Below, in pieces: positions 8,535 to 41,165 of a stretch of DNA of 41,525 nt (position 1 is the stretch's first letter; each line of letters starts with the position of its first letter). Under the pieces are notes generated by a model, which was not told the DNA's origin, did no database searches, and saw nothing but the letters and a program-made list of their open reading frames with translations. Source of the DNA: Lentisphaerota bacterium (GTDB taxonomy: Bacteria; Verrucomicrobiota; Kiritimatiellia; PWTM01). A program made the translations under genes and the position numbers. Location of the stretch: positions 1 through 41,525 of the forward strand of contig VGWF01000026.1 in NCBI GenBank assembly GCA_016873715.1, given 5' to 3'.

Positions 8535-8576
8535 GTGAACGGATCCCGGAAACGGCGATCCTGCCGCGCCGCCTCC

Positions 8577-8605: not shown

Positions 8606-8614
8606 CTTCGCGAC

Positions 8615-8710: not shown

Positions 8711-8767
8711 GCCCTCCGAGTACCGGATCAGGTGAAGGAACCCACCGCACGACGCGGTGGGTTTTTT
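8685..8767 (+). terminator. Transcription attenuator (antiterminator/terminator) of the leuA operon
   Basis: The terminator is AACCCACCGC (8739-8748) pairing with GCGGTGGGTT (8754-8763) around ACGAC, with six T bases at 8762-8767. Its 5' arm can instead pair with CGGTGGG at 8685-8691 (with CCCACCG 8741-8747), forming an antiterminator. A second hairpin nests inside that loop: CCGGT 8693-8697 with ACCGG 8722-8726, plus GGGC-GTAA-GCCC over the leader stop codon. A weaker stem, CGTGA (8635-8639) with TCACG (8682-8686), could hold the antiterminator arm when the leader is not translated. A ribosome stalled on the Leu codons would free 8685-8691 and let transcription continue; a ribosome reaching the stop codon would cover it and allow termination. 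Confidence 0.8.
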
Positions 8768-8835
8768 GTTGTACGGAAGGGTCGGTTGGGCAAGAGTCGC
8801 CGGCTGGCCGGCGAATGGAGAGGCAGGATAGCGCG

Positions 8836-10445
<1,610 letters not shown>

Positions 10446-10449
<4 letters not shown>

Positions 10450-18300: not shown

Positions 18301-18779
18301 ACGCCGCAGATGGCGCAGAAGACCTGCTCGGTCCGGGCGCCGAGGATCTCGTCGAACCGGCGGATGCCGCGGAGCAGGTCGGCGCTGGAGCGGCTGACGA
18401 GCATCGCGAGAAGGCCGCAGGCGAGGGCGCCGAAGAAGGCGGAGGCGAGGCCGACGCCCCACGCGGGGTTCGGGTGGCCGAGGAAGTCCTTCGCGTGGAA
18501 GACCCACTGGAAGAACCAGGTCGTCAGCGTCCAGATCGGGTAGCCGGGCGGGTGGGGGACGCCGAGGTAGTCGGAGGCGACGGCCAGTTCGCCGGAATCC
18601 TCCAGCGTGACCGTCGGCGCCAGGGTCATCACGTAACCGGCGAGCGAAAGCAGGAAGCCCGCCCAGAAGGCGATCCAGTCGGACCGGCGGAAGAACCGCT
18701 TCCCGGTCCCATCGGTTGCTTCCGTCCGTGCAACCGGTTCCATCCCGGCCGCCTGCCCGTCCATCGTGCGCGAGTTCAT
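15348..18779 (-). CDS. DUF2723 multi-pass membrane protein with TPR-like C-terminus
   Basis: This 1143-residue protein begins with the DUF2723 signature: VTLEDSGELAVASDYLGV then HPPGYP at about residues 57-81, with Glu60 and Asp61 in the first external loop, as in GT-C glycosyltransferases. Many membrane helices follow to about residue 610, then an extracytoplasmic region. From about 880 to 1120 there are TPR-like helical pairs (EANFRLADVYLARGRYEDARKIIND, WVELGGVRLALGRPDEAMAAL). DUF2723 proteins are widespread in Bacteroidetes and PVC bacteria and are thought to move sugars from lipid carriers onto proteins or glycans; the acceptor here is unknown. ATG 18779 has no clear ribosome binding site. 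The gene stands alone, convergent with the glycosyltransferase across the repeat array. Confidence 0.88.
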   Translation of the reverse strand: MNSRTMDGQAAGMEPVARTEATDGTGKRFFRRSDWIAFWAGFLLSLAGYVMTLAPTVTLEDSGELAVASDYLGVPHPPGYPIWTLTTWFFQWVFHAKDFLGHPNPAWGVGLASAFFGALACGLLAMLVSRSSADLLRGIRRFDEILGARTEQVFCAICGVSAGLVLAFSPVMWSQAVIVEVYALNAFFQILVMLLLYRWMARPADRVFLYAMAFLFGLGITNHQTLMLFALALALGILVRDPELFRDFLIVGAGLFVVLVANVVFAKLDKPTLAWTAPAGPTGPAFWVYIVLAVGIPLAGWAFLPNGKAVALTILLAELGLSFYLYLPFASDQNPPMNWAYPRTWEGFLHAISRGQYERITPTDVFSLKFVSQAGAFLADLRRQFTLPLVVGGILPFTMWEITIAGRRVRAFSIAFLLALAVGVLVSVEMGLALLGVATPAFVVALYRMVASFALLLGGIGVAGKAVQLIAYIFKQTSSRNLLTVILYILVLAGLAFTLLFYEFQLARMLAGSQGLGVGGALAVLLMMAAPPAIGVALYALQREPFRFGFEAHEGSCSWLLTTVLGFVAVGIVFIIMWNPALDVQTLFIGRVQFIQSHTLYALWLGYGLVLALAMVEILVGAVKALRWGAVAAALVLPPGLMLWQNGFDKELVDVFGGAEQNGHDFGWQFGDWQLRGVNGVREYLEETLPPSGFEKAWAEYPDKTYPPEMATNAVFFGGTDPGRFVPTYMIYSAKVRSDVYLITQNALADNTYLNVMRDLYGDTIWIPSILDSNAAFQQYFDQVKAGQLNAGADIAVKDGRISVQGVQGVMQINGILARQIYDNNPRHEFYVEESYVIPWMYEFLEPHGLIMKICRQPSQITPELIAKDRGFWDWYCKRLLADNAFKRDVVARKTFSKLRGAIAGLYAARGHFEEAEFAFRQAVDLYPLSPEANFRLADVYLARGRYEDARKIINDFLVGDPKNDKIREFLGFIDGIEGSSKRIAELEQQVQGGRMEVNAAIELVTLYRRLNRWPQFDRMMQDLLAQPSLPPPVYLQLGRLAYEAQRIPMLDAALVRYTTLQPNDPNGWVELGGVRLALGRPDEAMAALQNAVRAGGQPVRDQLRQDNRFAGLHPRPDFQQLVAPQMPQGPVQLPGTLKDLLR

Positions 18780-25601: not shown

Positions 25602-27046
25602 GGGGGCTGGCCCGGTGGCTTCCGGCGGGGCTTGTCTGCGCGATCGCGGCGGCATCGTGCACGTCGCTTCGGCCGGACCTGGAGTCCGCGAAGCGCGAGG
25701 CCGGGGCGCTGCCCGCGGCCTACGCGGCGGCGGAGACCGGCGGCGGGGCGGTGTCGAACGCCTGGTGGCGGTCGTTCGGCAGCCCCGAACTGGACGGGCT
25801 CATGGCGCGCGCGCTGCGGGGCAACATGGGCGTCGCGGCGGCGGAGGCGCGGCTGCGGCAGGCGCGCGCGGTGGCGGAGAAGGCCGGCGCGGCGCTTCGT
25901 CCCGAGGTGACCGGCTCGGCCGGCGCGGGGGTCACGCGCGTGCGCGGCACGGGGCAGGGCGGAGCGCGCGCGACGACGACGGTGGAGGACTACAGCCTCG
26001 GGCTGGCCGCATCCTACGAGATCGACCTGTGGGGCCGGGTCCGCGCGGTCCGCTCCGGGGCCGGACTCGCCGCCGAGGCCTCGGCGAGCGACCTGGAGAC
26101 GGCGCGGATGACCGTGGCGGCCCAGGTGGCCGACCGGTGGCTCGCCCTGCGCGAGGCGAACGCGCAGGTGGACCTGATCCGGGCCCAGATCGGCACGAAC
26201 GAGCGGGTGCTCGACCTGCTGCGCGAGCGGCTGGTCCGCACCTCGGCGACCGTGCTGCTCGATGTCTACCAGCAGGAACAGTCGCTGCGCGCGACCGAGG
26301 CCCTGCTGCCGCCGGCCGTGCAGCGCGCGGACCTCCTGCGGAACGAGCTGGCCGTCCTCGTCGGCGAGCCGGCGGGCGCGGACATCGGCGGCGCCGGCCG
26401 GGACCTGCCGTCGCTGCCGCCGGCCCCCGCCGCCGGCGTGCCGGCGGACCTGCTGGCCCGCCGGCCCGACCTTTGCGCCCAGCGGGCGCGCCTGGAGGCC
26501 GCGGGGTGGGACGTGGCCGCCGCGCGGGCCGACCGGCTTCCGGCGCTGCGGCTGACCGGCGCGGCGGCCTATGATTCCGCGGAATTCGCCGACCTGCTCG
26601 ACGACTGGGTCCTCAACCTCGCCGCGGGGCTGGCGGCCCCGGTGTTCGACGCGGGCCGTCGCCGCGCGGAGGTCGACCGGGTGCGCGCCGCGCTCGACGT
26701 GCAACTCGCGCAGTACCGCCAGGTGGTTCTCGACGCGGCGCGCGAGGTGGAGGATGCGCTCGTCCGCGAGCGCCGCCTGGGCGAGCGCCTGGACGCCAAG
26801 CGGCGCGAACTCGCGAGCGCGACGCGCGCGCTGGACGAGGCCCGGCGCAGCTACCTGAAGGGCGGTTCGGGCTACCTGCCCGTGCTGCTCGCGATGCGGT
26901 CGGTCCAGGCGCTGGAGCGCGAGGAAGTGGCGGCCGGGCGCGAGCTGCTGGCGAACCGCGTCTCGCTGTACCGCGCGCTGGGCGGCGACTGGTCCGGCGC
27001 GGCGGTCGACCGGGCGGTGGAGATGACGGAAGGGAAGGCACCATGA
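25598..27046 (+). CDS. RND outer-membrane factor lipoprotein (NodT/OprM type)
   Basis: This 482-residue protein is a TolC-like outer-membrane channel component. A signal peptide ends at AAASC with Cys21 as a likely lipidation site. Typical motifs are WWRSFGSPELDGLMARAL, SYEIDLWGRVR, LLARRPDL and LAAPVFDAGRRRAEVD, in family order. The sequence forms two related halves of long helices. It overlaps tetR upstream and the membrane-fusion gene downstream, so it is the exit channel of this tripartite pump. Confidence 0.92.
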   Translation: MRGLARWLPAGLVCAIAAASCTSLRPDLESAKREAGALPAAYAAAETGGGAVSNAWWRSFGSPELDGLMARALRGNMGVAAAEARLRQARAVAEKAGAALRPEVTGSAGAGVTRVRGTGQGGARATTTVEDYSLGLAASYEIDLWGRVRAVRSGAGLAAEASASDLETARMTVAAQVADRWLALREANAQVDLIRAQIGTNERVLDLLRERLVRTSATVLLDVYQQEQSLRATEALLPPAVQRADLLRNELAVLVGEPAGADIGGAGRDLPSLPPAPAAGVPADLLARRPDLCAQRARLEAAGWDVAAARADRLPALRLTGAAAYDSAEFADLLDDWVLNLAAGLAAPVFDAGRRRAEVDRVRAALDVQLAQYRQVVLDAAREVEDALVRERRLGERLDAKRRELASATRALDEARRSYLKGGSGYLPVLLAMRSVQALEREEVAAGRELLANRVSLYRALGGDWSGAAVDRAVEMTEGKAP

Positions 27047-28281
27047 CTCCGGAGAGCCCGTATTCACTGCGTTCGAAGGGACACCGCCCGCATCCCGTCC
27101 TGCGGATCTTCATCCCGCTGGTCCTGGTGGCGGCGGCCGTGTTCGGGGCCATCTGGCTGGTGAAGACCGGTCCCAAGCCGACGCCGCGTCCGCCGGGCGA
27201 GCGCGCCGCGGTGGTCGTCGTGACCAACCTGGTCCTGTCGGACGTGACGGTGGAGATCGAGACGACCGGCACCGTGGTGCCGAGCCGCTCGATCACGCTC
27301 ATGCCGCGCGTGTCGGGGCCGATCGTGTGGGTCGACCCCCGCTTCCTCCCCGGCGGCCGGTTCCGCGCGGGCGAGACGCTCGTGAGGATCGATCCCGCCG
27401 ACTACGCGCTGGCCGCGACCAACCGACAGGCCGGCCTCGTGAAGGCCGAATACGATCTCGAGGTGGAGCAGGGGATGCAGGACCTCGCCGCGTACGAGTG
27501 GCGGGCGGTGGCAACGAATGCGCCGGCCGGCGCCTACACGGACCAGGATCGCAGCCTCGCCCTCCGCGAGCCCCACCTGCGGCTGGTCCGCGGGAACCTG
27601 GCCTCGGCCCGCGCGCTGCTCGACCAGGCGCGGCTCGACCTCGACCGCACGGCGGTCCCCGTCCCCTTCAACGCGGTGGTCCGCGCGCGGAAGGCGGACC
27701 TCGGCGCGCAGGTCTCGCCGCAGACCGCGCTGGCCGACCTCGTCGGGACCGACGCCTACTGGGTCCGCGTCGCGCTTCCCGCGGGACAACTCCGCTGGGT
27801 GCGGGCGGCGGGGGCGGACGGGAAGGACGGGGCGCCCGCCGTCGTCTCCCCCGTGCCGGGCCTCGAGATGAACGCGACCTGGAAGGGGACGGTCCTGCGC
27901 GTGCTGCCCGAACTCGAGGAAGGCGGCCGCCAGGCCCAGCTGCTCGTCGAGGTTCCGGATCCCGACCGGCCCGCCACCGGGGACGCCCCCCTGCTGCTCG
28001 GGTCCTACGTCCGCGTCCGCATCGAGGGCCCCGTGCTCAGGAAGGTCGTGGCGATCCCGCGCACCGCCCTGCGCGAGGGCGACTGCGTCTGGGTCGTGCG
28101 CGCCGACAGCCGGCTCGAGGTCCGCCCCGTCGGGGTCGCCTGGAGCGACCGCGACCGCGCCGTCATCGGCCGGGGGCTGGCCGAGGGCGAGGCGATCGTG
28201 GTCAGCGAACTCGCCGTTCCGCTCACCGGGATGCTCCTGAAGGTCCAGGCGGCCGCCGCCCCCGGCGGGGAGGCGCGGTGA
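27043..28281 (+). CDS. RND periplasmic adaptor (membrane fusion protein)
   Basis: This 412-residue protein has one N-terminal membrane helix at about residues 20-42, then a lipoyl/barrel-sandwich half motif (TGTVVPSRSITLMPRVSG), a helical hairpin, the second half (RTAVPVPFNAVVRARKADLG) and beta-barrel domains. It would link the inner-membrane pump to the outer-membrane factor. ATG 27043 overlaps the previous stop (ATGA) and its stop shares one base with the pump start. There is no lipobox, so it is membrane-anchored by the helix. Confidence 0.92.
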   Translation: MTPESPYSLRSKGHRPHPVLRIFIPLVLVAAAVFGAIWLVKTGPKPTPRPPGERAAVVVVTNLVLSDVTVEIETTGTVVPSRSITLMPRVSGPIVWVDPRFLPGGRFRAGETLVRIDPADYALAATNRQAGLVKAEYDLEVEQGMQDLAAYEWRAVATNAPAGAYTDQDRSLALREPHLRLVRGNLASARALLDQARLDLDRTAVPVPFNAVVRARKADLGAQVSPQTALADLVGTDAYWVRVALPAGQLRWVRAAGADGKDGAPAVVSPVPGLEMNATWKGTVLRVLPELEEGGRQAQLLVEVPDPDRPATGDAPLLLGSYVRVRIEGPVLRKVVAIPRTALREGDCVWVVRADSRLEVRPVGVAWSDRDRAVIGRGLAEGEAIVVSELAVPLTGMLLKVQAAAAPGGEAR

Positions 28282-31200
28282 TGCCGACGCCCGCCATCGA
28301 ACGCGGTCTCAAGCGCGGCGCCGTCGCCTGGATGGCGAACAATCCCGTCACGGCGAACCTGCTGATGTTCTCCCTGCTGATCGGGGGGCTGATCAGCTTC
28401 CTGAACATCAAGCAGGAGGTCTTCCCGGACTTCGAGCTGGACGCCGTCAACATCTCGGTCGTCTACCCGGGCGCCAGCCCCGAGGAGGTGGAGCGCGGCA
28501 TCGTCCTGGCCGTCGAGGAGGCGGTGCGCGGCGTCGAGGGCGTCGAGAAGGTGACCTCGACCTCGCGCGAGGGCAGGGGCATGGTCGTCTGCGAGCTGCT
28601 GCTCGGCGCCGACCGGCAGAAGGCCTACCAAGACATCCAGCAGGAGGTCGCGCGCATCACGACGTTCCCCGAGGACGCCGAGGAGGTCGAGGTGTCGCTG
28701 GCGACCCGCCGCCGCGAGGTGCTGCAGATCGCGCTGTACGGCGACGAGAGCGAGCGCACGCTGCGGACGCTCGCCGAGCAGGTCCGCGACGAGCTGCTCC
28801 AGAACGAGGACGTGACGCAGGTGGACCTCACCGGCGTGCGCGATCCCGAGATCTCGGTGTCGATCCCGCAGGACACGCTGAGGGCGTACGGCCTGACGGT
28901 GGTCGACGTCGCCCGCATCATCGACGCCGCCAGCGTCGAACTGCCCGCCGGCGGCGTGAAGACGCGGGGCGGCGAGATCCTGCTGCGCGTCCGCGACCGC
29001 CGCGACTGGGGCGAGCAGTTCGCGAGGATCCCCGTCCTGAAGACGGCCGGAGGCCGCCAGGTGCTCCTCGGCGAGATCGCCGCCGTCGAGGACGGCTTCG
29101 AGGACGTCGACCGCTACGCAACCTACGAGGGCCGGCGCGCCGTCATGATCGAGATCTACCGCGTCGGCAACCAGACCCCGATGCAGGTCGCCGACGCCGC
29201 CCGCCGGACCCTCGCCGACCTCAACGCGAAGCTGCCCCCCGGCGTCAAGCTGGAGGTGCTGCGCGACTGGTCCGACATGTACCGCCAGCGCGCCGAGTTG
29301 CTCACGAAGAACGGGCTCCTCGGCCTGACGCTGGTCCTCGCCCTGCTGGGGCTGTTCCTCGATGCCCGCCTGGCCTTCTGGGTGGCGATGGGCATCCCGG
29401 TGTCCTTCCTGGGCGGGCTGCTCCTGATGCCGCTCTTCGGCGCGACGATCAACATGATCAGCATGTTCGCGTTCCTGATCGCCCTGGGCATCGTCGTCGA
29501 CGACGCGATCGTCGTCGGCGAGAACGTCTACGAGTACCACCAGCGCGGCTACCCGTTCCTCAAGGCGGCGATCGTCGGGACGCGCGAGGTCTCGATGCCG
29601 GTCGTGTTCAGCGTGCTGACGAACATCGTCGCCTTCGTCCCGCTGTTCTTCATCCCGGGCCTGATCGGCAAGATCTGGGGCGTGATCCCGATCGTCGTGA
29701 TCTCCGTCTTCAGCATCTCGCTGCTCGAGTCGCAGTACATCCTCCCGGCGCACCTCGGCCACGGCGGCGACCGCAGGCGGACGCGGATCGGCCGGTGGTT
29801 CCACGAGCGGCAGCAGCGCTTCAGCGTCGGGTTCATGCGCCGCGTGCACGAGGTCTACGGTCCGGTCCTCGACTGGGTCCTCTCGCACCGCTACATCACG
29901 ACGGCCCTCGGGGCCGCGATCCTCGTCGTGACGATCGGCTACGTGAGGAGCGGCCGGCTCGGCATGGTGCCGATGCCGCGCGTCGACGCCGACTACTCGG
30001 TCGTGACCGCCGCGCTTCCCTTCGGAAGCTCGGTGCGCGCGACCGAGCGGGTGCGCGACGCGCTGGAGGCCGCCGCGCGGGATCTCGGGCGGGAGATCCA
30101 GGAGAAGGACCCGCGCGGCCGGCGGGAGGTCACGGGGATCTACTCGGAGATCGGCGAGGAGTTCCGCGACGTGTCCGGCGGGCACGTCGTCGAGGTGCGC
30201 GCCTACCTGGCCGACGCGGACCACCGCCCCGTCAACACGAAGGAGTTCACCGAACGCTGGCGGGCCCGCGTCGGGGCGCTGGCCGGCGTCGACGCGATGC
30301 AGTACGAATCCGACCGCGGCGGCCCGGGCTCCGGCGTGTCGCTCTCGATCCAGTTGAGCCATGCCGACACCCGGCAGCTGGAGAAGGCCGCCGCGGAAAC
30401 CGCCGCCTGGCTCCGCGAGTTCCCCGGCGTCTCCGACATCGACATGGGCTACACGCCCGGCAAGGCGCAGTTCGACTTCACGATCCTGCCGGCCGGCCTG
30501 AGCCTGGGGCTGACGTCGGAGGAGATCGCCCGCCAACTCCGCGGCGCGTTCTACGGGGCCGAGGCCCTGCGCCAGCAGCGCGGCCGCAACGAGGTCAAGG
30601 TGCGCGTCCGCCTTCCCCTGGAGGAGCGCGGGAGCGAGCAGGACATCGGCAACCTGCTGATCCGCGCGCCGACCGGGGCCTACGTGCCGCTCTTCGAGGT
30701 CGCCCGGCCGGAGCGCGGGCGGTCCTACACGACGATCCAGCGGCGCGACGGCCGGCGCGTCTTCACCGTGACCGCCAACGTGACCCCCGTGGACGCGAGC
30801 GAGGCCATGCTCGCAACCTACCTCGGGATGAAGTTCCCCGAACTGCGCGACCGGTACCCCGGCCTCGGCTACGGCTTCGCCGGGCAGCAGGAGGACCTGC
30901 GCAAGGGGATGAAGGCGATGCGCATCGGGTTCCTGGCGGCCATCCTCATGGTCTACCTGCTCCTCGCGATTCCGTTCCGCAGCTACACGCAGCCGCTGAT
31001 CATCATGGTGAGCATTCCGTTCGGCATCGTCGGCGCGGTGGCCGGCCACGTGCTGATGGACTTCTCGATGAGCATGATCAGCGTGATGGGCATCATCGCG
31101 CTCGCCGGCGTCGTCGTGAACGACAGCCTTGTGCTGATCGAGTATGCCAACGCCCGGCGGAAGGAGGGGCTCAACGCCCACGATGCGATGCTCAACGCCG

Positions 31201-31442
31201 GGGTGCGCCGCTTCCGGCCGATCATGCTGACGACGCTGACGACGTTCTTCGGCCTGGCCCCGATGATCTTCGAGCAGAGCCGCCAGGCGCGCTTCATGAT
31301 CCCGATGGCGCTGTCGCTCGGCTACGGACTGCTCTTCGCCACCGTCATCACGCTGGCGATGACCCCGGCCCTGTACATGATCCTCGAGGACGCCGCCGGC
31401 TTCTTCAAGCGCCTCCGCGGGCAGGAACAGACGTCCGCGTAG
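28281..31442 (+). CDS. RND efflux transporter permease (AcrB/HAE-like)
   Basis: This 1053-residue inner-membrane pump has the RND layout: helix 1, a first large periplasmic domain (VYPGASPEEVE), helices 2-6 with GIVVDDAIVVGENVYE, a second periplasmic domain and helices 8-12. Asp407 and Asp408 match the proton-relay pair of AcrB. The position of the AcrB helix-10 lysine (K940) appears to be Asn947 (VVVNDSLVLIEYAN), as in many environmental RND pumps. Exported substrates are not known. ATG 28281 uses the last base of the upstream TGA. The gene ends ten bases before the convergent PPC-like gene. Confidence 0.93.
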   Translation: MPTPAIERGLKRGAVAWMANNPVTANLLMFSLLIGGLISFLNIKQEVFPDFELDAVNISVVYPGASPEEVERGIVLAVEEAVRGVEGVEKVTSTSREGRGMVVCELLLGADRQKAYQDIQQEVARITTFPEDAEEVEVSLATRRREVLQIALYGDESERTLRTLAEQVRDELLQNEDVTQVDLTGVRDPEISVSIPQDTLRAYGLTVVDVARIIDAASVELPAGGVKTRGGEILLRVRDRRDWGEQFARIPVLKTAGGRQVLLGEIAAVEDGFEDVDRYATYEGRRAVMIEIYRVGNQTPMQVADAARRTLADLNAKLPPGVKLEVLRDWSDMYRQRAELLTKNGLLGLTLVLALLGLFLDARLAFWVAMGIPVSFLGGLLLMPLFGATINMISMFAFLIALGIVVDDAIVVGENVYEYHQRGYPFLKAAIVGTREVSMPVVFSVLTNIVAFVPLFFIPGLIGKIWGVIPIVVISVFSISLLESQYILPAHLGHGGDRRRTRIGRWFHERQQRFSVGFMRRVHEVYGPVLDWVLSHRYITTALGAAILVVTIGYVRSGRLGMVPMPRVDADYSVVTAALPFGSSVRATERVRDALEAAARDLGREIQEKDPRGRREVTGIYSEIGEEFRDVSGGHVVEVRAYLADADHRPVNTKEFTERWRARVGALAGVDAMQYESDRGGPGSGVSLSIQLSHADTRQLEKAAAETAAWLREFPGVSDIDMGYTPGKAQFDFTILPAGLSLGLTSEEIARQLRGAFYGAEALRQQRGRNEVKVRVRLPLEERGSEQDIGNLLIRAPTGAYVPLFEVARPERGRSYTTIQRRDGRRVFTVTANVTPVDASEAMLATYLGMKFPELRDRYPGLGYGFAGQQEDLRKGMKAMRIGFLAAILMVYLLLAIPFRSYTQPLIIMVSIPFGIVGAVAGHVLMDFSMSMISVMGIIALAGVVVNDSLVLIEYANARRKEGLNAHDAMLNAGVRRFRPIMLTTLTTFFGLAPMIFEQSRQARFMIPMALSLGYGLLFATVITLAMTPALYMILEDAAGFFKRLRGQEQTSA

Positions 31443-31452
31443 CCCGCCGCGG

Positions 31453-33762
31453 CTACTGGATCAGCCGGGCCTCGACGCTGGCGACCTCGCGGTTGGCGAA
31501 CTCGTCGGTGATGAGCCAGAGCTGGTAGAGGTTCTCGACCTGCCGCAGGTAGCCGTCCACCTCCGACTTCCGCAGCGTGCGCTTCGCGTCCTTCGGCCGG
31601 TCCTCGTCGCGGATCGGCGGGCGGATGCGGTCCGCCGGCGCCTTGTACGCCGGATCGAAGACGAGGGCCGGAAGCGTTTCCGCCGGCAGCAGGTGCCGCC
31701 ACAGGAACGCCTGCATGCGGTCCTCGGCCGGAACGGCGGTGCGGACGATCTCGGCGTCGCCGGCCTTCGCGGTGCCGACGACGGTGAGCTGGACCGGTTT
31801 CTCCGTCTCCTCCAGGGTCGTCTTCACCGCCAGGCCCACGGAATCCTGCTTCGCGCCGAGCGTGGCGCCCGCCGACTCGAACCCCTGCGGAAGGTCCTTG
31901 AAGGCGAGCTGGATCGGCCCCTCGAAGCCGTCCCTGCGGATGGCGTACACGGTCACGGCGGCGGAGCCCTTGGCCTGGATCGAGACGCGCGAGGGGATCG
32001 CGCGCAGCTCGAAGTCCGGGCGCGGCGGGCCGATCCGGAGCCGGTAGGCGAAGTCCCTGCCCGACTGCCGCCGCGTGTCGCCGAGGTGGACGTGGTACTT
32101 CCCGTCGGCCGGGAGCTTCACCATCAGGTAGGAGTCGGCGTGGTCGGTGTTGAGGCCCGAGGCCGCGTCGTAGCGGTCGTCGTTGAGCGCGAGGATCCGG
32201 CCGTCCGCCGCGGTGACCTTGACGAACGAATCCAGCGGGGAGCCGAGCCGGCGGGCGTGGACCTCGGCGACGATCGTCTCGCCGGCCTTGCCGTCGATCT
32301 CGAAGATGTCCCAGTCGCCGGGCCGGTCCGACCGGCCGTTGACGATGACCGGAAGCGTGACCTTCTGCGCCGTGGCGGGCTCGTCGTTGGACTCCTGGTC
32401 CAGGCACTCGGGCAGCGTGTCCAGCATGAACGGGACCTGGTTGGAGACGCGCTTCCCGTCCGTCGCCGCCAGCAGGTGCCGCCCCGGTTTGGCCTCGGCG
32501 GGCGGGGGCGCGATGGTCGCCTTGTCCAGGTTCCACCCGGTCATCTCGATCTTCGCCGGTTCGCCCGCGCGACCGCCGAGCGGGAAGATGCCGGTCACGT
32601 AGGGCAGTTCGCCGACGGTGATGCGGTAGACGAAGCTCTCGCGGCCGCGGAAGAGCGCCTCGTGGATCGTCAGCAGGTACTCGCCGTCCTCCGGCACCTC
32701 GAAGAAGATCACGGGGTCGGGGTTCGAGCGGAAGTCGTCGCCGTAGGCCAGCTCGTTCCCGTTCGCGTCGCGGATCCGGAGGACGGCCTGGAGCCAGCCG
32801 GGGACGCCGTCGGGCACGTAGGGGACGAGTTCGCGGGCCCGGGCGCTGACGAGCAGCCGCTGGCCCTTGGTCGCCTCGAAGCGGTAGCGGTTGATCTCCC
32901 CCGCGGCGATCTGCCCGTTCATCGTGCACGGCACGGCGACGCGCACCTCCTCCTCCGCCGCCGGGCGCTTGCGCTGGGCGAGGTGCTCCTTGCCGAGGAC
33001 CGGGAGCTGCATCGTCTTCATGGGCTTGCGCGCGACCTCGGGCACCTGGTCGACGTAGAAGGGCAGCGGGTTGGAGACGCCGCGCTTCGTGACCACCCGG
33101 ATCTCGCGCCGGCCCGGCTTCGCGTCGGGGGCGATCGTGATCTCGGCGAACACGAGCTCGGTCTGCGAGCGGACGGCGGGATCGCGCTGGTCCTCCGCGA
33201 ACCTCCGCTGGATCATGTCGATCATCTTCTGCTTGGCCGCCTCCCGCTCGACGGCCTCCGGCGACGCGTTCGTCGCGGCCGGCGCGCCCGCGCCCGCGTC
33301 CTTCGGCTTCTCCAGCTTCGCGTGGCACTTGCTGCAGACGTCCGCCTCGAGCGGGTTGGCAGTTCCGCACACCGTGCAGACCAGGGCGGGCACCGCGTTG
33401 GGCCCGGCGTCCGGCCCGATGGGGGCGGGGAGTTCGATCGCCGCCATGCGGGCGACGATGGAGTCGTTGACCGTCGTCTCCTTCCTCCGCAGCTCGTTCA
33501 ACTGCTGGTTGAGGAGCCCCATCTCCTGGTTGTCGAAGACCCGGTAGTACTCGACCAGCCGCGCGGTGACCCCTTCGCCGGTCACGATCACGTCGGAGGC
33601 GTTGGCCAGGCCCTGCCCGCCGAGGCGGATGGGGAAGGTGGTGTCCTGCTGGCCGCCGGCGGGATAGGTGAACCCGATGTACTGGTTCTGCCCGCGGGCG
33701 GCCAGGGCGGCCGCCACAAGGATCGCCAACCCCAGGGACGGAAGGGCGTGGAGTCTGCGCAT
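31453..33762 (-). CDS. Exported protein with PPC (pre-peptidase C-terminal)-like domains
   Basis: This 769-residue protein has a Sec signal peptide (about 1-24) and an N-terminal IPT/TIG-like segment (GFTYPAGGQQDTTFPIRLGG). Later segments match PPC-type beta domains found in PVC proteins: NGQIAAGEINRYRFEATKGQRL near 285, GDWDIFEIDGKAGETIVAEV near 480, and HADSYLMVKLPADGKYHVHLGD near 550. A four-cysteine zinc ribbon (Cys129, Cys132, Cys143, Cys146) and a flanking charged helix sit in the N-terminal third, which is unusual for an exported protein. GGAGAGG lies before ATG 33762. It is the last gene of a three-gene unit with DUF1501 and PSCyt2/PSD1 proteins; the role is unknown, perhaps ligand or matrix binding. 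Confidence 0.8.
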   Translation of the reverse strand: MRRLHALPSLGLAILVAAALAARGQNQYIGFTYPAGGQQDTTFPIRLGGQGLANASDVIVTGEGVTARLVEYYRVFDNQEMGLLNQQLNELRRKETTVNDSIVARMAAIELPAPIGPDAGPNAVPALVCTVCGTANPLEADVCSKCHAKLEKPKDAGAGAPAATNASPEAVEREAAKQKMIDMIQRRFAEDQRDPAVRSQTELVFAEITIAPDAKPGRREIRVVTKRGVSNPLPFYVDQVPEVARKPMKTMQLPVLGKEHLAQRKRPAAEEEVRVAVPCTMNGQIAAGEINRYRFEATKGQRLLVSARARELVPYVPDGVPGWLQAVLRIRDANGNELAYGDDFRSNPDPVIFFEVPEDGEYLLTIHEALFRGRESFVYRITVGELPYVTGIFPLGGRAGEPAKIEMTGWNLDKATIAPPPAEAKPGRHLLAATDGKRVSNQVPFMLDTLPECLDQESNDEPATAQKVTLPVIVNGRSDRPGDWDIFEIDGKAGETIVAEVHARRLGSPLDSFVKVTAADGRILALNDDRYDAASGLNTDHADSYLMVKLPADGKYHVHLGDTRRQSGRDFAYRLRIGPPRPDFELRAIPSRVSIQAKGSAAVTVYAIRRDGFEGPIQLAFKDLPQGFESAGATLGAKQDSVGLAVKTTLEETEKPVQLTVVGTAKAGDAEIVRTAVPAEDRMQAFLWRHLLPAETLPALVFDPAYKAPADRIRPPIRDEDRPKDAKRTLRKSEVDGYLRQVENLYQLWLITDEFANREVASVEARLIQ

Positions 33763-33787: not shown

Positions 33788-35191
33788 CTACAGGATCTCC
33801 TCCAGCATCCCGGCGGACTTCATCCCCTCGCGCTCGGTGTCCAGCACGTAGGCGTCGAGCCCCCACGGATGAGGCAGCTTGGCCGAGGCGTCGATGCCGG
33901 CCAGCAGGTACATGCTGCCCAGCAGGTCGGCCGGGTAGACGGGCCGGGTCCCGACCTTCTCGCCCTTCTCGTCCGAGGCGCCGACGACGCGGCCGCCCTT
34001 GAAGCCGCCGCCCGCGACGAGCACGGTGAAGACATCGCCGTGGTGGTGGCGCCCGCCGTTCCACGGCGGCTCCCAGGAGATCCTGGGCGTCCGGCCGAAC
34101 TCGCCGGTGCACCACACGAGGGTGGAGTCCAGCAGGCCGCGCTCGCCGAGGTCGGCGAGCAGCGTGGCGAGGCCCTGGTCGAGCATCGGGCACTGCGACC
34201 GCATGGTGGCGAAGTGGCCACCGTGCGTATCCCAGCCGCCGGGGAAGCTGATCGTGATGTAGGGCACGCCCGCCTCGACCAGCCGGCGCGCCGCGAGGCA
34301 CTCCTGCCCGAAGGTGTTCCGGCCGTACCGGTCGCGGAGCGCGCTGGACTCGTTGTCCAGGTTGAAGACCTCCCTGCCGCTGCCGAGGATCAGGCCGTAG
34401 GCCCGCTGCTTGGCCTCCTCGGCGCCGGCGATCTCCGGCGTGTCCGAGAGGCCGTAGCCGAGCATGTTGACCTTGTCGACAAGGTCGCGGCGGGCGCGCT
34501 GGCGGCCGTCGTCGATGCCGCGGTTGATGATGCCCTCGACCTCGAAGCGGGCCGCGTTGGGATCGCCCCCGGTGGCGAAGGGCTTGTAGGCCGGGCCGAG
34601 GAAGCCCTCCTCGGAGAAGCGGCCGGCGGCCTGGAGCATCACGACGTAGGGCGGAATCAGCCCCTTGTACTGCTCGCGGCGGAAGTAGGTGAAGATCGCG
34701 CCGACGCTCGGGTACGCGAGCCGTCCGCCCGGCAGGTGGCCGGTCTGCATCAGGTAGGCGGCCGTCTCGTGGCCGTTGTTCCCGTGGGTCATGCTGCGGA
34801 TCAGGGAGTACTTGTCGGCCTGCTGCGCCAGCTTCGGGAACAGGTAGCCGAGCTTGACGGTGTCGACGTTCGACGGGATGAACCGGTTGTCGAAATCGCC
34901 GAGGTACTCGTAGCCGGTGCCGGGCTTCGGGTCCCACGCATCGTTGTGCGACATGCCGCCCCAAAGGAAGATCTGGATGACGGACTTGGTCTGCCCCTTC
35001 TTCGCCTTGGCCCGGGCGGCGTCGTCCCGCACGGCCTTCTCGTCGGCCGGTTTCGGCGCCGGGGCGTCGGCGCGGGCCGGAACCGCGTTCGGCCCCAGGG
35101 CCCCGGCCGCGAACACGCCGGCGGCGCCCAGGGTTCCGCGCCGCAGGGCCTCGCGCCGGGTGATGGAGGAGTGACGATGGCTCGTGCTCAT
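33788..35191 (-). CDS. DUF1501 family protein, Tat-exported
   Basis: This 467-residue protein starts with a twin-arginine signal (TRREALRRG then GAAGVFAAGALGP). The rest matches DUF1501, a group related to the alkaline phosphatase/sulfatase fold: FLWGGMSHNDAWDPKP, MTHGNNGHETAAYLMQTG, GGWDTHGGHF and WCTGEFGRTP in order. Histidines and aspartates in these motifs may bind metal. DUF1501 genes are nearly always next to PSCyt2/PSD1 genes in Planctomycetota and relatives, as here (82 bases downstream of it). The biochemical role is not established. A GAGAGG sequence precedes ATG 35191. Confidence 0.9.
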   Translation of the reverse strand: MSTSHRHSSITRREALRRGTLGAAGVFAAGALGPNAVPARADAPAPKPADEKAVRDDAARAKAKKGQTKSVIQIFLWGGMSHNDAWDPKPGTGYEYLGDFDNRFIPSNVDTVKLGYLFPKLAQQADKYSLIRSMTHGNNGHETAAYLMQTGHLPGGRLAYPSVGAIFTYFRREQYKGLIPPYVVMLQAAGRFSEEGFLGPAYKPFATGGDPNAARFEVEGIINRGIDDGRQRARRDLVDKVNMLGYGLSDTPEIAGAEEAKQRAYGLILGSGREVFNLDNESSALRDRYGRNTFGQECLAARRLVEAGVPYITISFPGGWDTHGGHFATMRSQCPMLDQGLATLLADLGERGLLDSTLVWCTGEFGRTPRISWEPPWNGGRHHHGDVFTVLVAGGGFKGGRVVGASDEKGEKVGTRPVYPADLLGSMYLLAGIDASAKLPHPWGLDAYVLDTEREGMKSAGMLEEIL

Positions 35192-35273: not shown

Positions 35274-38200
35274 TCAATGCCTCAGGAGGAACTCGGGGCT
35301 GTTGATCAGGGCCCAGGACAGGTCGATCCACACGTCCCGACCCTTCGTCGCCCCGCCCGCCGCGTACTCCTCGGCGGCCCGGATGTCGGCCTCCGTCGGG
35401 AACCGCGAGAGGATGGTCAGGTAGAGCCGCTCCGCGATCTCGGCCGGCTTGCCGCCGGAGGAGCAGATCGCGCCGAGCGTCGGGCCGTTCTGGAGCTTGC
35501 CCTGGATCGCGGCCGAGTTGAGCATGTAGAGCCACTGCGTCGAGGCCATCTCGTTGATGCGCTCGGCCTCCATCCCCGTCGCGCGGGCGGACCGCCCGAA
35601 CAGCGTGAGGAACGGGCTGGTGACGCTGCCGTCGGCCAGCCCGACCGCGGACATCTCCTTCGGGATGTAGGTGAACGGCTCGGGGACCGCGCTGGTGTAG
35701 AGGTCCGAGCTGCCGGTGATCTGGTTGACCGCGTCGATCAGCACCTCGGCCTCGACGCGCCGCATGAGGTAGTTCGCGAAGTTCGCCCGGGCCTCCGGCT
35801 TCGCGTCGCGCATGATCGACGAGAACTGGTAGGTGGTCGACGTCAGGATCATCCGCTTCAGCCGCTTGAGGTCGTAGCCGCCCGCGACCAGTTCCTGCTC
35901 CAGGCAGGCGAGGAGTTCGGGGTTGGCCGGCGGGTTGCCGTCCCGGATGTCGTCCGGTTCGTGGACGATGCCGCGGCCCATCACCCACGCCCAGGTGCGG
36001 TTGACGACGGCCTTCGTGAACCAGGGGTTCTCGGGCCGGATCAGCCAGTCGGCGAAGGCCTCGCGCGGGTCGCGGTTCGGCGGGACCGTCGTCGCGACGC
36101 CGTCCGGGAAGGCCGCGGCGACCGGCCCGTTCTGCTTGAGGGGCTCGGCGAGCGACGGCGGGATCTGGTTCGTCATCGCGACCGACTTGGCCACCGCGTC
36201 CACGCCCGGCGCGATGCTGCCGGGGACGGCCGTCGAGCGGAGCGGATCCCAGAAGACGATCTCCTCCTTCCACTCGCTGGTCGGCTTGTAGCCGATCTGC
36301 GTGAAGAAGGCCGCCATGCCGGCGCGCCGCTCCGCGGGCCACAGGTGCACCCGCGTGCCCATCATCGTGAGGGCGACGATCGCGGCGATGCCCTCGGGCG
36401 TCTTGTCCTGGATCGCGCGGTAGAAGTTCACCGGGCCGACGCGGAAGTTGCTGCCGCTGGAGGTCAGCAGCTCGCGCGCGAACTGGTCGTAGCGCTTGTT
36501 CCTCGCGACCGACTCCCACACCCAGCGGTGATAGGCTTGCGCGGCGTTCGGCCAGAGCTTGACGGGGAACTCGGCCTTGATGCGGAGCGCGTCGCTCCAC
36601 TTCATCGCCCAGTAGTCGGCGTGCTCCTGGCGGTCGAGGAGCCGGTCGACCAGCGCGGGGCGCTTGTTCGCGTCCGGATCCTGGATGAAGGCGCGCGCGT
36701 CGTCCGCGGAGGGAAGGCGGCCGGTGATGTCGAGGTGGGCGCGGCGGACGAACACCGCGTCGGAGCAGAGCCGCGGCTGGATGCCGACGGCCTGCAGCTT
36801 CGCGAAGACGAGCTCGTCAATCCGGTTCGACGGCTTCGGCGGCTCGGGGCTCTCCATCAGGGCCGGCACGCGCGCACCCGCGATGATCCGGTAGAGGACC
36901 GCCTTCGTCCGGTCGACCGTTCCGCGCCGGTCGTCGGAGACCTGCACCGCCGCCGTGTACGCGGCGCGGGTCCGCTCGGCCTCGGCCTTCAGCGGCACCG
37001 CCGCCGCCTCGGCCGCCTTGGCGGCCTCCTCGTCGGCGACGTGCGACTGCTTGGCGGCGGCGATCCGGTTCTTCAGGCCCTCCAGGCCCTCCTCGGCGGA
37101 CTTCTTCCGCGCCTCGGCGCGGCTCAGTGCCTGTGCCGCGTTGTTCGCCTGCACCGCCGCCTGCTCCAGCGCCTTCGCCTTCGGGTCCAGGGCCGCCTTC
37201 GCGTCGTTCGCCGCCTTGCGCCGCTCCGCGGCCAGCGCCGCGGCCTGCCGGTGGGCGGCATCGAGCGGGAGGACGTCCTTGCCGGAATCCTGCGCCGCCT
37301 GCTGCGCCCACGCGTCGGCGGCCGTACGGCCCTTCGCCCCGGCCAGCGCCTGGTCGGCGGCGTTCTTCTGCGCATCCGCGTCGGCCAGCTTCTGCCCGGC
37401 GGCCGCGGCCTGGGCCTGCGCGGCCTGCTCGCCCTGCTGGGCCTTGGCGAGCGCCGCCTTCGCGTCATCCGCGGTCTTGCGCTTCGCCGCGGCGTCGTCG
37501 GCCGCCTGCTTCTTCTCCGCCTCGGGCTTCGCGGCATCGGCGGCGATCTGCGCGGCCGCGGCCTGGGCGGCCTGCGCGGCCTGCTCGGCCGCCTGGACCG
37601 CGGACGCGGCGGCGGCGGTCTGGGCCTTGAGGTTCGCCAGCGCGTCGTCGGCCGGCTTCTTCGACGCCTGGGCCTCGCCCAGCTTCTGTGCGGCGGCGGT
37701 CGCCGCGGCCTGCGCCTGCTGCTCCGCCTGCTGCGCGGCCGCCAGCGCGGCGGCCGCGTCCGCCGCGGCCTTGCGTTTCGCCGCGGCACCGGCCGCGACC
37801 TGGTTCTTCTCGTCCGCCGTCTTCGCCGCGGCCTGCGCGACCTGCTCGGCGGCCTGCAATGCCGCCGTGCCGGTGGTGATCTGGGTCCGCGTGTTGGCCA
37901 GGGACGCGTCGGCCACCTTCCGCTTCGCCTGCGCCTGCGCGAGCTTCTTCGAGGCGGCATTGGCTTGCGCCAGCGGACCCTGCTGGGCGGCCTGCGCCGC
38001 GGTCAGCGCCGCCTTGGCCTCGCCGGCGGCCTGGCGCTTCGCGGCGGCGGCCGCCGCGGCCTGCTGCTTCTGCGCCTCGGTCCGGCCGGCCCGCTCGGCG
38101 AGCGTGCGGGCGACGGCCTCCGCGGCCTGCGCGGCCTGCTCCGCCGCCTGCGCCGGGCCGTCGAGTGGGGCGGTCTTCGCCTTCGCCGCGGCGAGGGCGT

Positions 38201-41165
38201 CGTCCGCCGCCTTCTTCTGCGCGGGCGCCTCGGCGAGCGCCTTCGCGGCGGCGTCGACCCGCGCCTGCGCCTGCGGCTCGGCCTGGCGGGCCTGCGCGAG
38301 CGCGGCCTTTGCGGCCTCGGACGCCTGGCGCTTCGCCGTCGCCTCGTCGGCCGCCTTCTGCTTCTCCTCGGGAGACTTCGCGGCATCCGCGGCGACCGCC
38401 TTGGCGGCGGCGTCGGCCGCCTGCGCGGCCGGTTCGGCGGACTTCAACGCGCCGTCGGCCGCGGCGACCTGGGCCTTCGCGGCGGCGAGGGCGTCGTCTG
38501 CCGCCTTCTTCTGCGCGGGCGCCTCGGCGAGCGCCTTCGCGGCGGCCTCGACCCGGGCCTGCGCCTGCTGCTCGCTCTGGCGGGCCTGCGCGAGCGCCGC
38601 CTTCGCGGCCTCGGCGGCCTTGCGCTTCGCGTCCTCGTCGGCCGCGGCCTGCTGTTTCTCCGCGTCGGTGACCGGCTTGAGGTCGGCTTCCGCGGCGGCG
38701 GCGGCCTGCTCCGCGGCCTGCAACGCGGCCGTGGCGGCGGCCACCCGGGCGCGGAGCGGGGCGGCCGCGGTCTCGGCGGCCCCGGCCTGCGCCTCGGCGT
38801 CCGAGAGCGCCTGCGCCGCGGTGGCGGCCTGCGCGGCCAGCCGCGGCTCGGACTGCTGGGCGCGGGTCAGCGACGACTTCGCGCTGTCGGCGGTCCGGCG
38901 TAGCGCCGTCGCCTGGGCCGTCGCCTTCTTGGCGTCCTCGTCGATCCTCGCCGCGACCTCCGCGGCGGCCCGCGCGGCGGCCTCGGCCTCGCGCGCCGCC
39001 TTCTCGGCCGCGTCGTAGGCCTGCTGGAGCGGGAGCGCGGCGGCCTTGGCGTCCTCGAGCGTCTTGTCAAGGCCGGGCTTCACACCCGTCGCGTCGGCCA
39101 GCGCCTTGACGGCCTCGGGCACGGCGGCCTCGGCCTGCTTGAGCTCCGCCACGCCCTGGTCGCCGGCGAGGTTTCTCGCGTCCGTCGCCTGCTGCCGTTT
39201 CGCGATGGCGACCCGGCTCGCGTCGGCATAGGCCTTGTCCGCCGCCTGCATCGCGGCCCGCAGCGGGACGATCGCCGCCTCGGCGTCGCGCGCCGCGACG
39301 ACGGCCACCTCGAACTCGGCCCGGGCCCGGTCCTCCGGGTTCATCGCGGCGAGCATTTCCGTCCACGCCTGGTTCGCCGCCGTGCGCCGCTCGGCCGCCG
39401 TTTTCTCGGCGGCCGCGAGGCCCGCCCGCGCGTTGTCCGCCGCCGCCTTGGCCGCGACGACCGCGGCGTCGGCGTCGCGGACCGCCTGCTCCGCCGCCTG
39501 CATCGCCTGCGTCGCCGCGGCGACCTTCGCCGTGACGCCCGCGAGGGCCGCCTCGGCCGCCTTCTTCCGCGCGTCGGCCTCGGCCAGCTTCTGCGCCGCG
39601 GCGGCGGCCTGGCCCTGCGCCGCCTGTTGCTTCTGCTGGGCCTGCGCGAGCGCGGTGCGGGACGCCTCCGCCTCCGCCCGCCGCGTCGCCACCAGCGCGG
39701 TCGCCTGCTGGCTCTCCTGTTCGACGCGGAGGATGTCCTTCGCCGTCTCGCATGCGGCCTGGTGCGTCGCCTGAACGGTGGCGACCTGCCCGACCGCGTT
39801 CGTCACGGCCTCGTCGGCGGTCTTCCGCGCGGTATCGATGTCGGCCAGCCGCTGGCCGGCGGCCGCGACCAGCGCCTGCGCGTGCTGCTCGCTCTGCTGC
39901 GCCCGCGCGACGAGATCCGCGGGCTGGCCCGGCGCGGCCGCCGTGGCCGCCTGGGTCTTCACGTTGGCCATGACCTGGTCGACGAGTTGCTTGTGGGCCG
40001 TCGCCTCGTTCATCGTCTGCGCGACGGCGGCGGTCCGCGCCCGCGCCTGTGCCTCGACCTGCTGCGCCTGCGCCAGCGCCGTCGCGGTGTCGGCCACCGC
40101 CTTGCGCCGCGCGGTCGCGTCGGCCAGCACCTTGCCCTTCTCCCCTGCGATCGCCGCGGCGTCCTGCGCGGCCTTGTCCGCGGTCGCGGTGGCGGTCGCG
40201 GCCGTCGCCGTACGGCCCTTGGCGGCGGCGAGGGCGTCGTCGGCCGGCTTCTTCTCCGCCTCGGCCTGGGCCACCGCCTGTGCCGCGGCGGCGGCCGGGG
40301 CCTGCGCCTGCGACTCGGCCTGCTGCGCCTGGGCGAGGGCGGCCGCGGTGTCGGTGGCGGTCTTGCGCTTCGCGGCGGCCTCGTCGGCGGCCTGCTTCTT
40401 CTCGGGTTCCGGCTTGGCGGCATCGGCGGCGATCTGTCCGGCCCGGGCCTCGGCCTCCTGGGCCGCCTTGCCCGCGGCGTCGGCCGCGGCCGCGGCGGTC
40501 GTGACCTGGGTCCGGAGCGCGGCGAGGGCGTCGTCCGCCGCCTTCTTCTGCGCGAGGGCTTCGGCGAGTTTCTTCGCGGCGGCGTCGGCCGGGGCCTGCG
40601 CCTGCGGCTCGGCCTGCTGCGCCTGGGCGAGGGCGGTCCGCGCCGCCTCGGCGGCCTTGCGGGCGGCGTCGGCGTCGGCCGCCGCCCTGGCGGCCTCGTC
40701 CGCGATGCGTGTGACCTCGGCGGCCTTCGCTTTCGCGGCGGCGTCGGAGTCCTGGACGGCCTTGTCCGCCGCGGCGACGGCCTGCTGGGCCGCGGCGACC
40801 GCGGCGTTGGCGTCCGCCAGCGCCTTGTCCGGCGCCGCCTTGGCGTTGGTCGTGTCGGTGAGCGCCTGGTTCGCGGCGGCCAGCCCGGCTTCGGCGGGCT
40901 TCTGCTGGCCCGCGACGAGATCGTCGACCTGCTTCTTCGCGTCGGCCGCCTGCTGCCGCTTCGTCGCGGCCGCCTGCTCGGCGGCGGTTTGCGCGGCGAC
41001 GGCCTGGTCGGTGGCGGCTCGGGCGGGAGGGACGGCGGCCGCGGCTTCGCGGGCCGCCTGGTCGGCCGCCGCGAAGGCGGCGTTGGTGACGATCGCGGCG
41101 GCGGCCTGGAAACAGACCGCCGAGGCGAGCAGGAGAACAAGAACTGGAATCGACCGGGTTCTCAT
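35274..41165 (-). CDS. Giant alanine-rich coiled-coil protein with PSCyt2 (DUF1549) and PSD1 (DUF1553) domains
   Basis: This 1963-residue protein has a Sec signal peptide (about 1-24, ending QAAAA). About residues 25-1440 are almost entirely Ala, Lys, Gln, Glu and Asp in long helices. Repeated phrases (AAKRKxA, AALAQAQQAE, QKKAADDALAAAK) recur about every 86-98 residues, giving roughly 14-15 degenerate copies. From about Asn1447 the sequence is a normal PSCyt2 domain (NRIDELVFAKL, RRAHLDITGRLPS, YWAMKWSDALRIKAE) followed by PSD1 (PENPWFTKAVVNRTWAWVMGRG, LILTSTTYQ-like MILTSTTYQFSS, LNSPEF-like INSPEFLLRH). No CxxCH haem motif was seen, unlike PSCyt1-containing relatives. It is the first gene of the unit with DUF1501 and the PPC-like protein. 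Long open frames on the opposite strand across the coiled coil are codon-bias shadows. Confidence 0.85.
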   Translation of the reverse strand: MRTRSIPVLVLLLASAVCFQAAAAIVTNAAFAAADQAAREAAAAVPPARAATDQAVAAQTAAEQAAATKRQQAADAKKQVDDLVAGQQKPAEAGLAAANQALTDTTNAKAAPDKALADANAAVAAAQQAVAAADKAVQDSDAAAKAKAAEVTRIADEAARAAADADAARKAAEAARTALAQAQQAEPQAQAPADAAAKKLAEALAQKKAADDALAALRTQVTTAAAAADAAGKAAQEAEARAGQIAADAAKPEPEKKQAADEAAAKRKTATDTAAALAQAQQAESQAQAPAAAAAQAVAQAEAEKKPADDALAAAKGRTATAATATATADKAAQDAAAIAGEKGKVLADATARRKAVADTATALAQAQQVEAQARARTAAVAQTMNEATAHKQLVDQVMANVKTQAATAAAPGQPADLVARAQQSEQHAQALVAAAGQRLADIDTARKTADEAVTNAVGQVATVQATHQAACETAKDILRVEQESQQATALVATRRAEAEASRTALAQAQQKQQAAQGQAAAAAQKLAEADARKKAAEAALAGVTAKVAAATQAMQAAEQAVRDADAAVVAAKAAADNARAGLAAAEKTAAERRTAANQAWTEMLAAMNPEDRARAEFEVAVVAARDAEAAIVPLRAAMQAADKAYADASRVAIAKRQQATDARNLAGDQGVAELKQAEAAVPEAVKALADATGVKPGLDKTLEDAKAAALPLQQAYDAAEKAAREAEAAARAAAEVAARIDEDAKKATAQATALRRTADSAKSSLTRAQQSEPRLAAQAATAAQALSDAEAQAGAAETAAAPLRARVAAATAALQAAEQAAAAAEADLKPVTDAEKQQAAADEDAKRKAAEAAKAALAQARQSEQQAQARVEAAAKALAEAPAQKKAADDALAAAKAQVAAADGALKSAEPAAQAADAAAKAVAADAAKSPEEKQKAADEATAKRQASEAAKAALAQARQAEPQAQARVDAAAKALAEAPAQKKAADDALAAAKAKTAPLDGPAQAAEQAAQAAEAVARTLAERAGRTEAQKQQAAAAAAAKRQAAGEAKAALTAAQAAQQGPLAQANAASKKLAQAQAKRKVADASLANTRTQITTGTAALQAAEQVAQAAAKTADEKNQVAAGAAAKRKAAADAAAALAAAQQAEQQAQAAATAAAQKLGEAQASKKPADDALANLKAQTAAAASAVQAAEQAAQAAQAAAAQIAADAAKPEAEKKQAADDAAAKRKTADDAKAALAKAQQGEQAAQAQAAAAGQKLADADAQKNAADQALAGAKGRTAADAWAQQAAQDSGKDVLPLDAAHRQAAALAAERRKAANDAKAALDPKAKALEQAAVQANNAAQALSRAEARKKSAEEGLEGLKNRIAAAKQSHVADEEAAKAAEAAAVPLKAEAERTRAAYTAAVQVSDDRRGTVDRTKAVLYRIIAGARVPALMESPEPPKPSNRIDELVFAKLQAVGIQPRLCSDAVFVRRAHLDITGRLPSADDARAFIQDPDANKRPALVDRLLDRQEHADYWAMKWSDALRIKAEFPVKLWPNAAQAYHRWVWESVARNKRYDQFARELLTSSGSNFRVGPVNFYRAIQDKTPEGIAAIVALTMMGTRVHLWPAERRAGMAAFFTQIGYKPTSEWKEEIVFWDPLRSTAVPGSIAPGVDAVAKSVAMTNQIPPSLAEPLKQNGPVAAAFPDGVATTVPPNRDPREAFADWLIRPENPWFTKAVVNRTWAWVMGRGIVHEPDDIRDGNPPANPELLACLEQELVAGGYDLKRLKRMILTSTTYQFSSIMRDAKPEARANFANYLMRRVEAEVLIDAVNQITGSSDLYTSAVPEPFTYIPKEMSAVGLADGSVTSPFLTLFGRSARATGMEAERINEMASTQWLYMLNSAAIQGKLQNGPTLGAICSSGGKPAEIAERLYLTILSRFPTEADIRAAEEYAAGGATKGRDVWIDLSWALINSPEFLLRH

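What the first reader, a model, noticed from the sequence alone, without database searches (positions are those of the whole stretch)
35274..41165. 1963-residue PSCyt2/PSD1 protein with a 1400-residue repetitive coiled coil and no haem motif
PSCyt2 and PSD1 domains usually follow a cytochrome-like PSCyt1 or a carbohydrate-binding domain. Here they follow about 14-15 degenerate Ala/Lys/Gln-rich helical repeats of 86-98 residues behind a signal peptide. Such a rod could span the periplasm or form a filament presenting the C-terminal domains. I do not recall this architecture.
Basis: partly seen in the sequence, partly recalled or inferred. Interest (0 to 1): 0.75.

Follow-up and report, generated by a model that had tools for sequence, protein, structure and literature searches.

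The report
Coiled-coil rod on haem-less DUF1549/DUF1553 protein
This is a real 1963-residue secreted protein of Planctomycetota- and Verrucomicrobiota-type bacteria in which a long, repeat-built helical rod carries a haem-less version of a common but uncharacterised bacterial domain pair; it belongs to a conserved three-gene cassette that appears to have moved between phyla and whose function nobody has tested.

Summary
One intact ORF (35274-41165, minus) encodes a signal peptide, about 1400 Ala-rich helical residues, then PSCyt2 (DUF1549) and PSD1 (DUF1553); no CxxCH. It is neither a join nor a singleton: 40 further coil-bearing loci (4 more truncated) lie in Planctomycetota, Verrucomicrobiota, Kiritimatiellota and Lentisphaerota, one clade, one origin of the coil. 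Short paralogues without the coil also lack haem: the CxxCH loop is replaced by GTRxxxWP throughout the subfamily. The coil is ordered (N-cap, units R1-R5 of 98/87/92 residues, C-tail) and under purifying selection; the window's copy alone carries the whole module twice. Behind it lie a Tat-exported DUF1501 protein with a sulfatase-like fold and a PPC protein, in nearly every relative; a zinc ribbon in the PPC protein occurs in 21 of 34 coil loci and 0 of 32 short loci. Head and DUF1501 are 74-82% identical to Planctomycetota genomes whose RpoB is only 44-46% identical, suggesting horizontal transfer. Best reading: an envelope complex in which the rod is spacer and scaffold for a sulfatase-fold module. 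Architecture and cassette are shown; function is inferred. New variant of a known kind.

The parts
35274..41165 (-). Coil-PSCyt2*-PSD1 protein, 1963 aa (whole ORF incl. stop)
   Evidence: 40 further coil-bearing relatives
41094..41165 (-). Sec-type signal peptide, residues 1-24 (MRTRSIPVLVLLLASAVCFQAAAA)
   Evidence: read from sequence; complete relatives start with a comparable hydrophobic stretch, with no conserved lipobox seen. No SignalP run
39354..41084 (-). Coil module 1 (residues 28-604): N-cap copy 28-191, units, C-tail copy 467-604
   Evidence: cap profile 150 bits, tail profile 117 bits; BLAST within own genome: cap 44% id E 6.5e-16, tail 39% id E 2e-9
36864..39335 (-). Coil module 2 (residues 611-1434): N-cap 611-780, units R1-R5 764-1236, R6-like unit, C-tail 1287-1434
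   Evidence: cap 256 bits, tail 222 bits; same unit order in relatives
36414..36824 (-). PSCyt2 (DUF1549) N-terminal part, residues 1448-1584
   Evidence: Pfam PF07583 E 9.6e-27, profile 1-144 of 209
36336..36359 (-). Residues 1603-1610 GTRVHLWP, where canonical PSCyt2 has GCAACHDHKFDP (haem motif)
   Evidence: comparison with L001 of the same genome and with no-haem relatives
35364..36065 (-). PSD1 (DUF1553), residues 1701-1934
   Evidence: Pfam PF07587 E 2.2e-39
33788..35191 (-). DUF1501 protein, 467 aa, twin-arginine (RREALRRG) N-terminus, sulfatase/alkaline-phosphatase-like fold
   Evidence: Pfam PF07394 E 5e-90; 77 PDB matches with E<=1e-3, the 50 listed nearly all sulfatases and kin; conserved directly downstream in relatives
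31453..33762 (-). PPC-domain protein, 769 aa, Sec-type signal
   Evidence: Pfam PF04151 E 8.6e-8; conserved third gene
33307..33384 (-). Zinc-ribbon insert in the PPC protein (residues 127-152)
   Evidence: weak zinc-ribbon hit here (below cut-off), over cut-off in L007; CxxC...CxxC in 21/34 coil loci and 0/32 short loci

Best explanation
A secreted, probably periplasmic, scaffold protein. After Sec export the Ala-rich heptad coil forms a long helical arm, possibly folded back on itself at its helix breaks. The arm positions a haem-less PSCyt2-PSD1 head, which works as a structural or docking domain and not as a cytochrome. The head acts with the two proteins encoded behind it, the Tat-exported DUF1501 protein (sulfatase/alkaline-phosphatase-like fold) and the PPC protein, on a sulfated or phosphorylated glycan or envelope polymer. 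Shown: architecture, single origin of the coil, haem-loop loss, cassette, selection on the coil, patchy distribution. Inferred: periplasmic location, physical complex, scaffold role, substrate class.
For: Coil fused to head in 40 further loci, one clade with SH-aLRT 100. Coil under purifying selection, with conserved caps and the same unit order across phyla; the caps were found only in these proteins in the six genomes searched. DUF1501 and PPC genes directly downstream in nearly every locus long enough to show them, and no other conserved neighbour. Export signals on all three proteins (sequence). The DUF1501 model matches S1-type sulfatases and kin. The zinc ribbon in the PPC partner occurs only with coil heads (21/34 vs 0/32), which links coil and cassette. 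AlphaFold2: helices for the coil, confident mostly helical head.
Against: I found no biochemistry for the DUF1549, DUF1553 or DUF1501 families. The DUF1501 model is only moderately confident (pLDDT 63.5, TM about 0.38), and the two Asp at the end of strand 1 of sulfatases (own knowledge) read WGG here, so activity is not assured. No physical contact between the three proteins was tested. Short paralogues occur in the same cassette without any coil, so the coil is an add-on. SignalP and localisation were not run.
Confidence: 0.45

Rival explanations
1. Periplasm-spanning tether or ruler: the coil bridges inner membrane or peptidoglycan and outer membrane, TolA-like, holding the head at a set distance; the unit number sets the length.
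For: TolA domain II is also Ala/Lys/Glu/Gln-rich helical (own knowledge). Length varies by whole units (coil 450-1435 aa). A basic KRK patch conserved in the unit (K .90, R .96, K .80 over 247 units) could contact a polyanion.
Against: No membrane anchor, lipobox or peptidoglycan-binding domain seen; signal peptides look cleavable. Length differs threefold between relatives, odd for a ruler. No TolA-type Pfam hit.
Confidence: 0.2
2. Cell-surface filament or adhesin: coils assemble laterally into fibres outside the cell and display the head.
For: Very long Ala-coil with conserved charge patches; secreted.
Against: No outer-membrane export system, anchor or surface-display domain in the cassette; the DUF1501 partner carries a Tat-type signal, i.e. 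is sent to the periplasm.
Confidence: 0.15
3. The coil is a neutral low-complexity expansion fused to an ordinary head, with no function of its own.
For: Length is very variable; the window's copy is duplicated; short forms without coil occur in the same cassette.
Against: dN/dS 0.12-0.32 across the coil in eight pairs; N-cap and C-tail 52-67% identical between phyla; ordered, distinguishable units.
Confidence: 0.08
4. Artefact: assembly join, frameshift, or reading of the wrong strand in GC-rich DNA.
For: Long spurious ORFs exist on the other strand (538 and 584 aa).
Against: The same fused frame occurs in 40 other assemblies, including isolates ZRK34 and CA13; selection acts on this frame.
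Confidence: 0.01

Closest known systems
PSCyt2 (PF07583, DUF1549) / PSD1 (PF07587, DUF1553) proteins of the PVC bacteria
   Same: Both Pfam domains in the usual order, above cut-off; secreted
   Different: Usually combined with PSCyt1, CBM or protein-interaction domains (PMC5615132, Fig. 8 legend) and carrying CxxCH; here a 450-1435-residue coil instead and no CxxCH
DUF1501 genomic module of PVC bacteria (Kamneva et al. 2012, as cited in PMC4452313 and PMC4960237)
   Same: DUF1501 gene in a conserved gene cluster, signal peptides
   Different: A third PPC gene is constant here, with a zinc ribbon in many coil loci; the secondary sources I could read name no coil
Short no-haem PSCyt2/PSD1 paralogues (for example L048, L064, own-genome L002-L005)
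   Same: Same head (55-67% identity), same haem-loop replacement; DUF1501 and PPC genes downstream where the locus is long enough to show them
   Different: No coil (about 26-165 residues before the head; L003 has 238 non-coil residues); PPC partner without the zinc ribbon
S1 sulfatases / alkaline phosphatase superfamily (fold of the DUF1501 partner)
   Same: Foldseek matches, 77 with E<=1e-3
   Different: 9-16% identity, low TM; the strand-1 DD metal motif reads WGG; a Cys/Ser-x-Pro-x-Arg motif was not seen
TolA domain II and other Ala-rich periplasmic helices
   Same: Composition and helix (works-like comparison only, from own knowledge)
   Different: No sequence family match, no membrane anchor

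Membership tests
PSCyt2 (DUF1549) | Match to PF07583 over its curated cut-off | tested here: met
   94.7 bits against a cut-off of 29.8, but only profile 1-144 of 209
PSCyt2 (DUF1549) | CxxCH haem-binding motif (the reason for the name cytochrome) | tested here: not met
   No CxxCH in the protein, nor in 84 no-haem relatives except one stray upstream of the coil in the L014 frame; the loop is replaced
PSD1 (DUF1553) | Match to PF07587 over its curated cut-off | tested here: met
   135.7 bits against a cut-off of 28.5, profile 2-243 of 244
DUF1501 module | DUF1501 gene directly adjacent on the same strand | tested here: met
   33788-35191, 302.9 bits; conserved in relatives
DUF1501 module | Association with intracellular membranes or a compartmentalised cell plan | not testable with these tools
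   Claim of Kamneva et al. known only through PMC4452313 and PMC4960237
TolA-like periplasmic tether | N-terminal membrane anchor plus Ala-rich helical domain plus TolA C-terminal domain | tested here: not met
   Ala-rich helix present; signal peptide looks cleavable; C-terminal domains are PSCyt2/PSD1
S1 sulfatase (for the DUF1501 partner) | Alkaline-phosphatase-type fold | tested here: inconclusive
   77 Foldseek hits with E<=1e-3, TM at most 0.40, model pLDDT 63.5
S1 sulfatase (for the DUF1501 partner) | Formylglycine motif C/S-x-P-x-R | tested here: not met
   Not seen in the 38-sequence alignment; the likely corresponding stretch reads THGNNGHETAAYLMQTG (read by eye)

The most novel reading that the evidence does not exclude
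A horizontally moving three-gene envelope system in which a modular coiled-coil arm, extended by whole units and duplicated entire in this genome, scaffolds a haem-less DUF1549/DUF1553 head together with a sulfatase-fold DUF1501 enzyme and a zinc-ribbon PPC protein: a periplasmic scaffolded hydrolase complex not described before.
Probability: 0.3. Interest if true: 0.7.

Novelty: new variant of a known kind. Interest (0 to 1): 0.5.

Why it matters
DUF1549 and DUF1553 are among the most expanded unknowns of Planctomycetota (41 copies of each domain in Rhodopirellula baltica, PMC2754498) and are usually called cytochromes. A whole subfamily without the haem loop, tied to a fixed cassette, shows that the haem is dispensable for part of the family and separates a cytochrome role from a DUF1501-partner role. 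The coil form is present once per genome in the genomes checked, isolates included, so the role of the DUF1501 module becomes testable on a single marked locus instead of on dozens of paralogues.

Tried and rejected
Artefact or frameshift: rejected. Recent tandem amplification of one unit: rejected, units are old and ordered. Coil borrowed from a stand-alone protein: no such protein with the caps in six genomes searched. Solved relatives of the head or coil by sequence: none convincing; Foldseek gave no match at E<=1e-3 for coil plus head, only weak coiled coils. Virus-borne copies: none confirmed in viral contigs; plasmid copies of this DUF1501 subtype: none (best 34% identity). The original DUF1501-module paper (10.1093/gbe/evs113) is not held. 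The first RpoB comparison used wrong frames and was redone; the first profile searches failed on flags or time and were redone.

Full report
Observation. The ORF 35274-41165 on the minus strand is intact and codes for 1963 residues. PSCyt2 (DUF1549) covers residues 1448-1584 and PSD1 (DUF1553) 1701-1934, both far above Pfam's cut-offs; the first 1440 residues match no family convincingly. That part is 40% Ala, 10% Gln, with a clear 98/87-residue repeat and a heptad period in its few large hydrophobic residues.

Relatives. A search of one genome per species with the 528-residue head returned 80 loci. Sorting them by what precedes the head gives two classes. Loci at 70% identity or more carry 450-1292 residues of the same Ala-rich coil, fewer only where the contig ends or the frame is cut (the raw L014 frame of 1702 includes upstream read-through); loci at or below 67% have a short N-terminus. 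In a tree of the heads the 41 coil-bearing rows (the window and 40 others), plus four truncated ones, form one branch with SH-aLRT 100; its sister is a short Pirellulaceae protein. So the coil was gained once. The genome of the window also has four short no-haem paralogues and one canonical PSCyt1-PSCyt2-PSD1 protein.

Haem. In the canonical paralogue L001 the loop reads GLTMGCAACHDHKFDP. In the window and in the coil and short relatives aligned it reads roughly ALTxMGTRxxxWP. Pfam matches therefore stop at about profile position 126-149 of 209. Haem loss belongs to the whole subfamily and predates the coil.

Anatomy of the coil. Profiles built from relatives define a 172-residue N-cap, a unit of 98 residues (variants of 87, 92 and 94) and a 150-residue C-tail. 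The order R1 (92) - R2 (98) - R3 (98) - R4 (87) - R5 (98) - R6-like - tail recurs in Planctomycetota, Verrucomicrobiota and Kiritimatiellota; length changes by whole units. Across 247 units large hydrophobics sit at positions 5, 26, 40 and 47, in heptad register, and K33 and the basic triplet 92-94 are nearly invariant; gaps cluster at 66-81. The window's protein is the only one found with two full caps: residues 28-604 and 611-1434 are two copies of the coil module (confirmed by BLAST). dN/dS in the coil is 0.12-0.32 in eight pairs, against 0.05-0.19 for the head. In six genomes searched the caps occur in no other protein, and are absent from a genome with only the short form.

Structure. AlphaFold2 on residues 1052-1963 with 68 relatives gives helices of 148, 79 and 58 residues broken near the KPEAEKK-type segments, and a confident, mostly helical head. 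Nothing in the PDB matches at E<=1e-3. The coil's best matches are SMC, MukB and chemoreceptor coiled coils; one (5xg2, an SMC arm fragment made of two separate segments) reaches TM 0.66 by target length, which hints that the coil folds back.

Neighbours. On the same strand follow DUF1501 (82 bases on) and a PPC-domain protein (25 bases on). Both are conserved downstream in nearly all loci long enough to show them, coil and short class alike, and no other neighbour is. DUF1501 has a twin-arginine start and its model matches sulfatases, but the usual sulfatase motifs are not evident. The PPC partner holds a zinc ribbon in 21 of 34 coil loci and 0 of 32 short loci, so the third gene changed together with the coil; this association is confounded with the single origin of the coil clade.

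Spread. Only 3 of 289 genomes of the window's phylum and 1 of 294 of Planctomycetota (the query's own centre) show the coil-class head (only the top candidates of each genome were scored). The four coil genomes checked beyond the window's hold one coil copy each and one or more short ones. Between the window's genome and two Planctomycetota isolates RpoB is 44-46% identical while head and DUF1501 are 74-75% and 81-82% identical. Vertical descent with extreme constraint is possible, but transfer is the simpler reading, in line with the mixed phyla in the tree (inner support only moderate).

Literature. In the library searched, one paper names DUF1549 (PMC2754498: a PSCyt2/PSD1 gene possibly controlled by an ECF sigma factor; 41 copies of each domain in R. 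baltica) and one describes PSCyt architectures (PMC5615132: CBM and protein-interaction partners, no coiled coil mentioned, function unknown). The DUF1501 module of compartmentalised PVC bacteria is cited in PMC4452313 and PMC4960237; the original was not available.

Conclusion. A real, conserved and unusual architecture of a known family. The mechanism given (scaffold arm for a sulfatase-fold envelope module) is the best fit but rests on genome context, export signals and fold similarity.

Noticed in passing
window 33307-33384 (PPC gene 31453-33762): Zinc ribbon (CTVCGTANPLEADVCSKCH) inside a Sec-exported PPC protein; among relatives it occurs only in cassettes with a coil head and is missing from short-form cassettes. 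An exported zinc ribbon is unusual.
   Followed up: partly
window 27043-31442 (+): HlyD-type adaptor (27043-28281) and AcrB-type RND pump (28272-31442), convergent with the cassette; they do not recur beside relatives.
   Followed up: partly
window 15348-18779 (-): 1143-residue protein with a TMEM260-like O-mannosyltransferase domain and C-terminal TPRs.
   Followed up: no
window 4205-7444 (+): Ser/Thr protein kinase with further segments incl. DUF1648, 1079 aa.
   Followed up: no
window 19188-22298 (+): 1036-residue open frame without a Pfam hit; a nearly as long frame (992 aa) lies opposite, so the coding strand is undecided.
   Followed up: no
L014 (uncultured Lentisphaerae), ORF 3895-10575: The open frame starts about 550 residues upstream of the signal peptide; the upstream part, with the only stray CxxCH, looks like non-coding read-through.
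   Followed up: partly
window residue 1963 (bases 35277-35279): The C-terminal His (PEFLxRH-stop) is invariant in all 68 aligned heads, which may point to a functional C-terminus.
   Followed up: no
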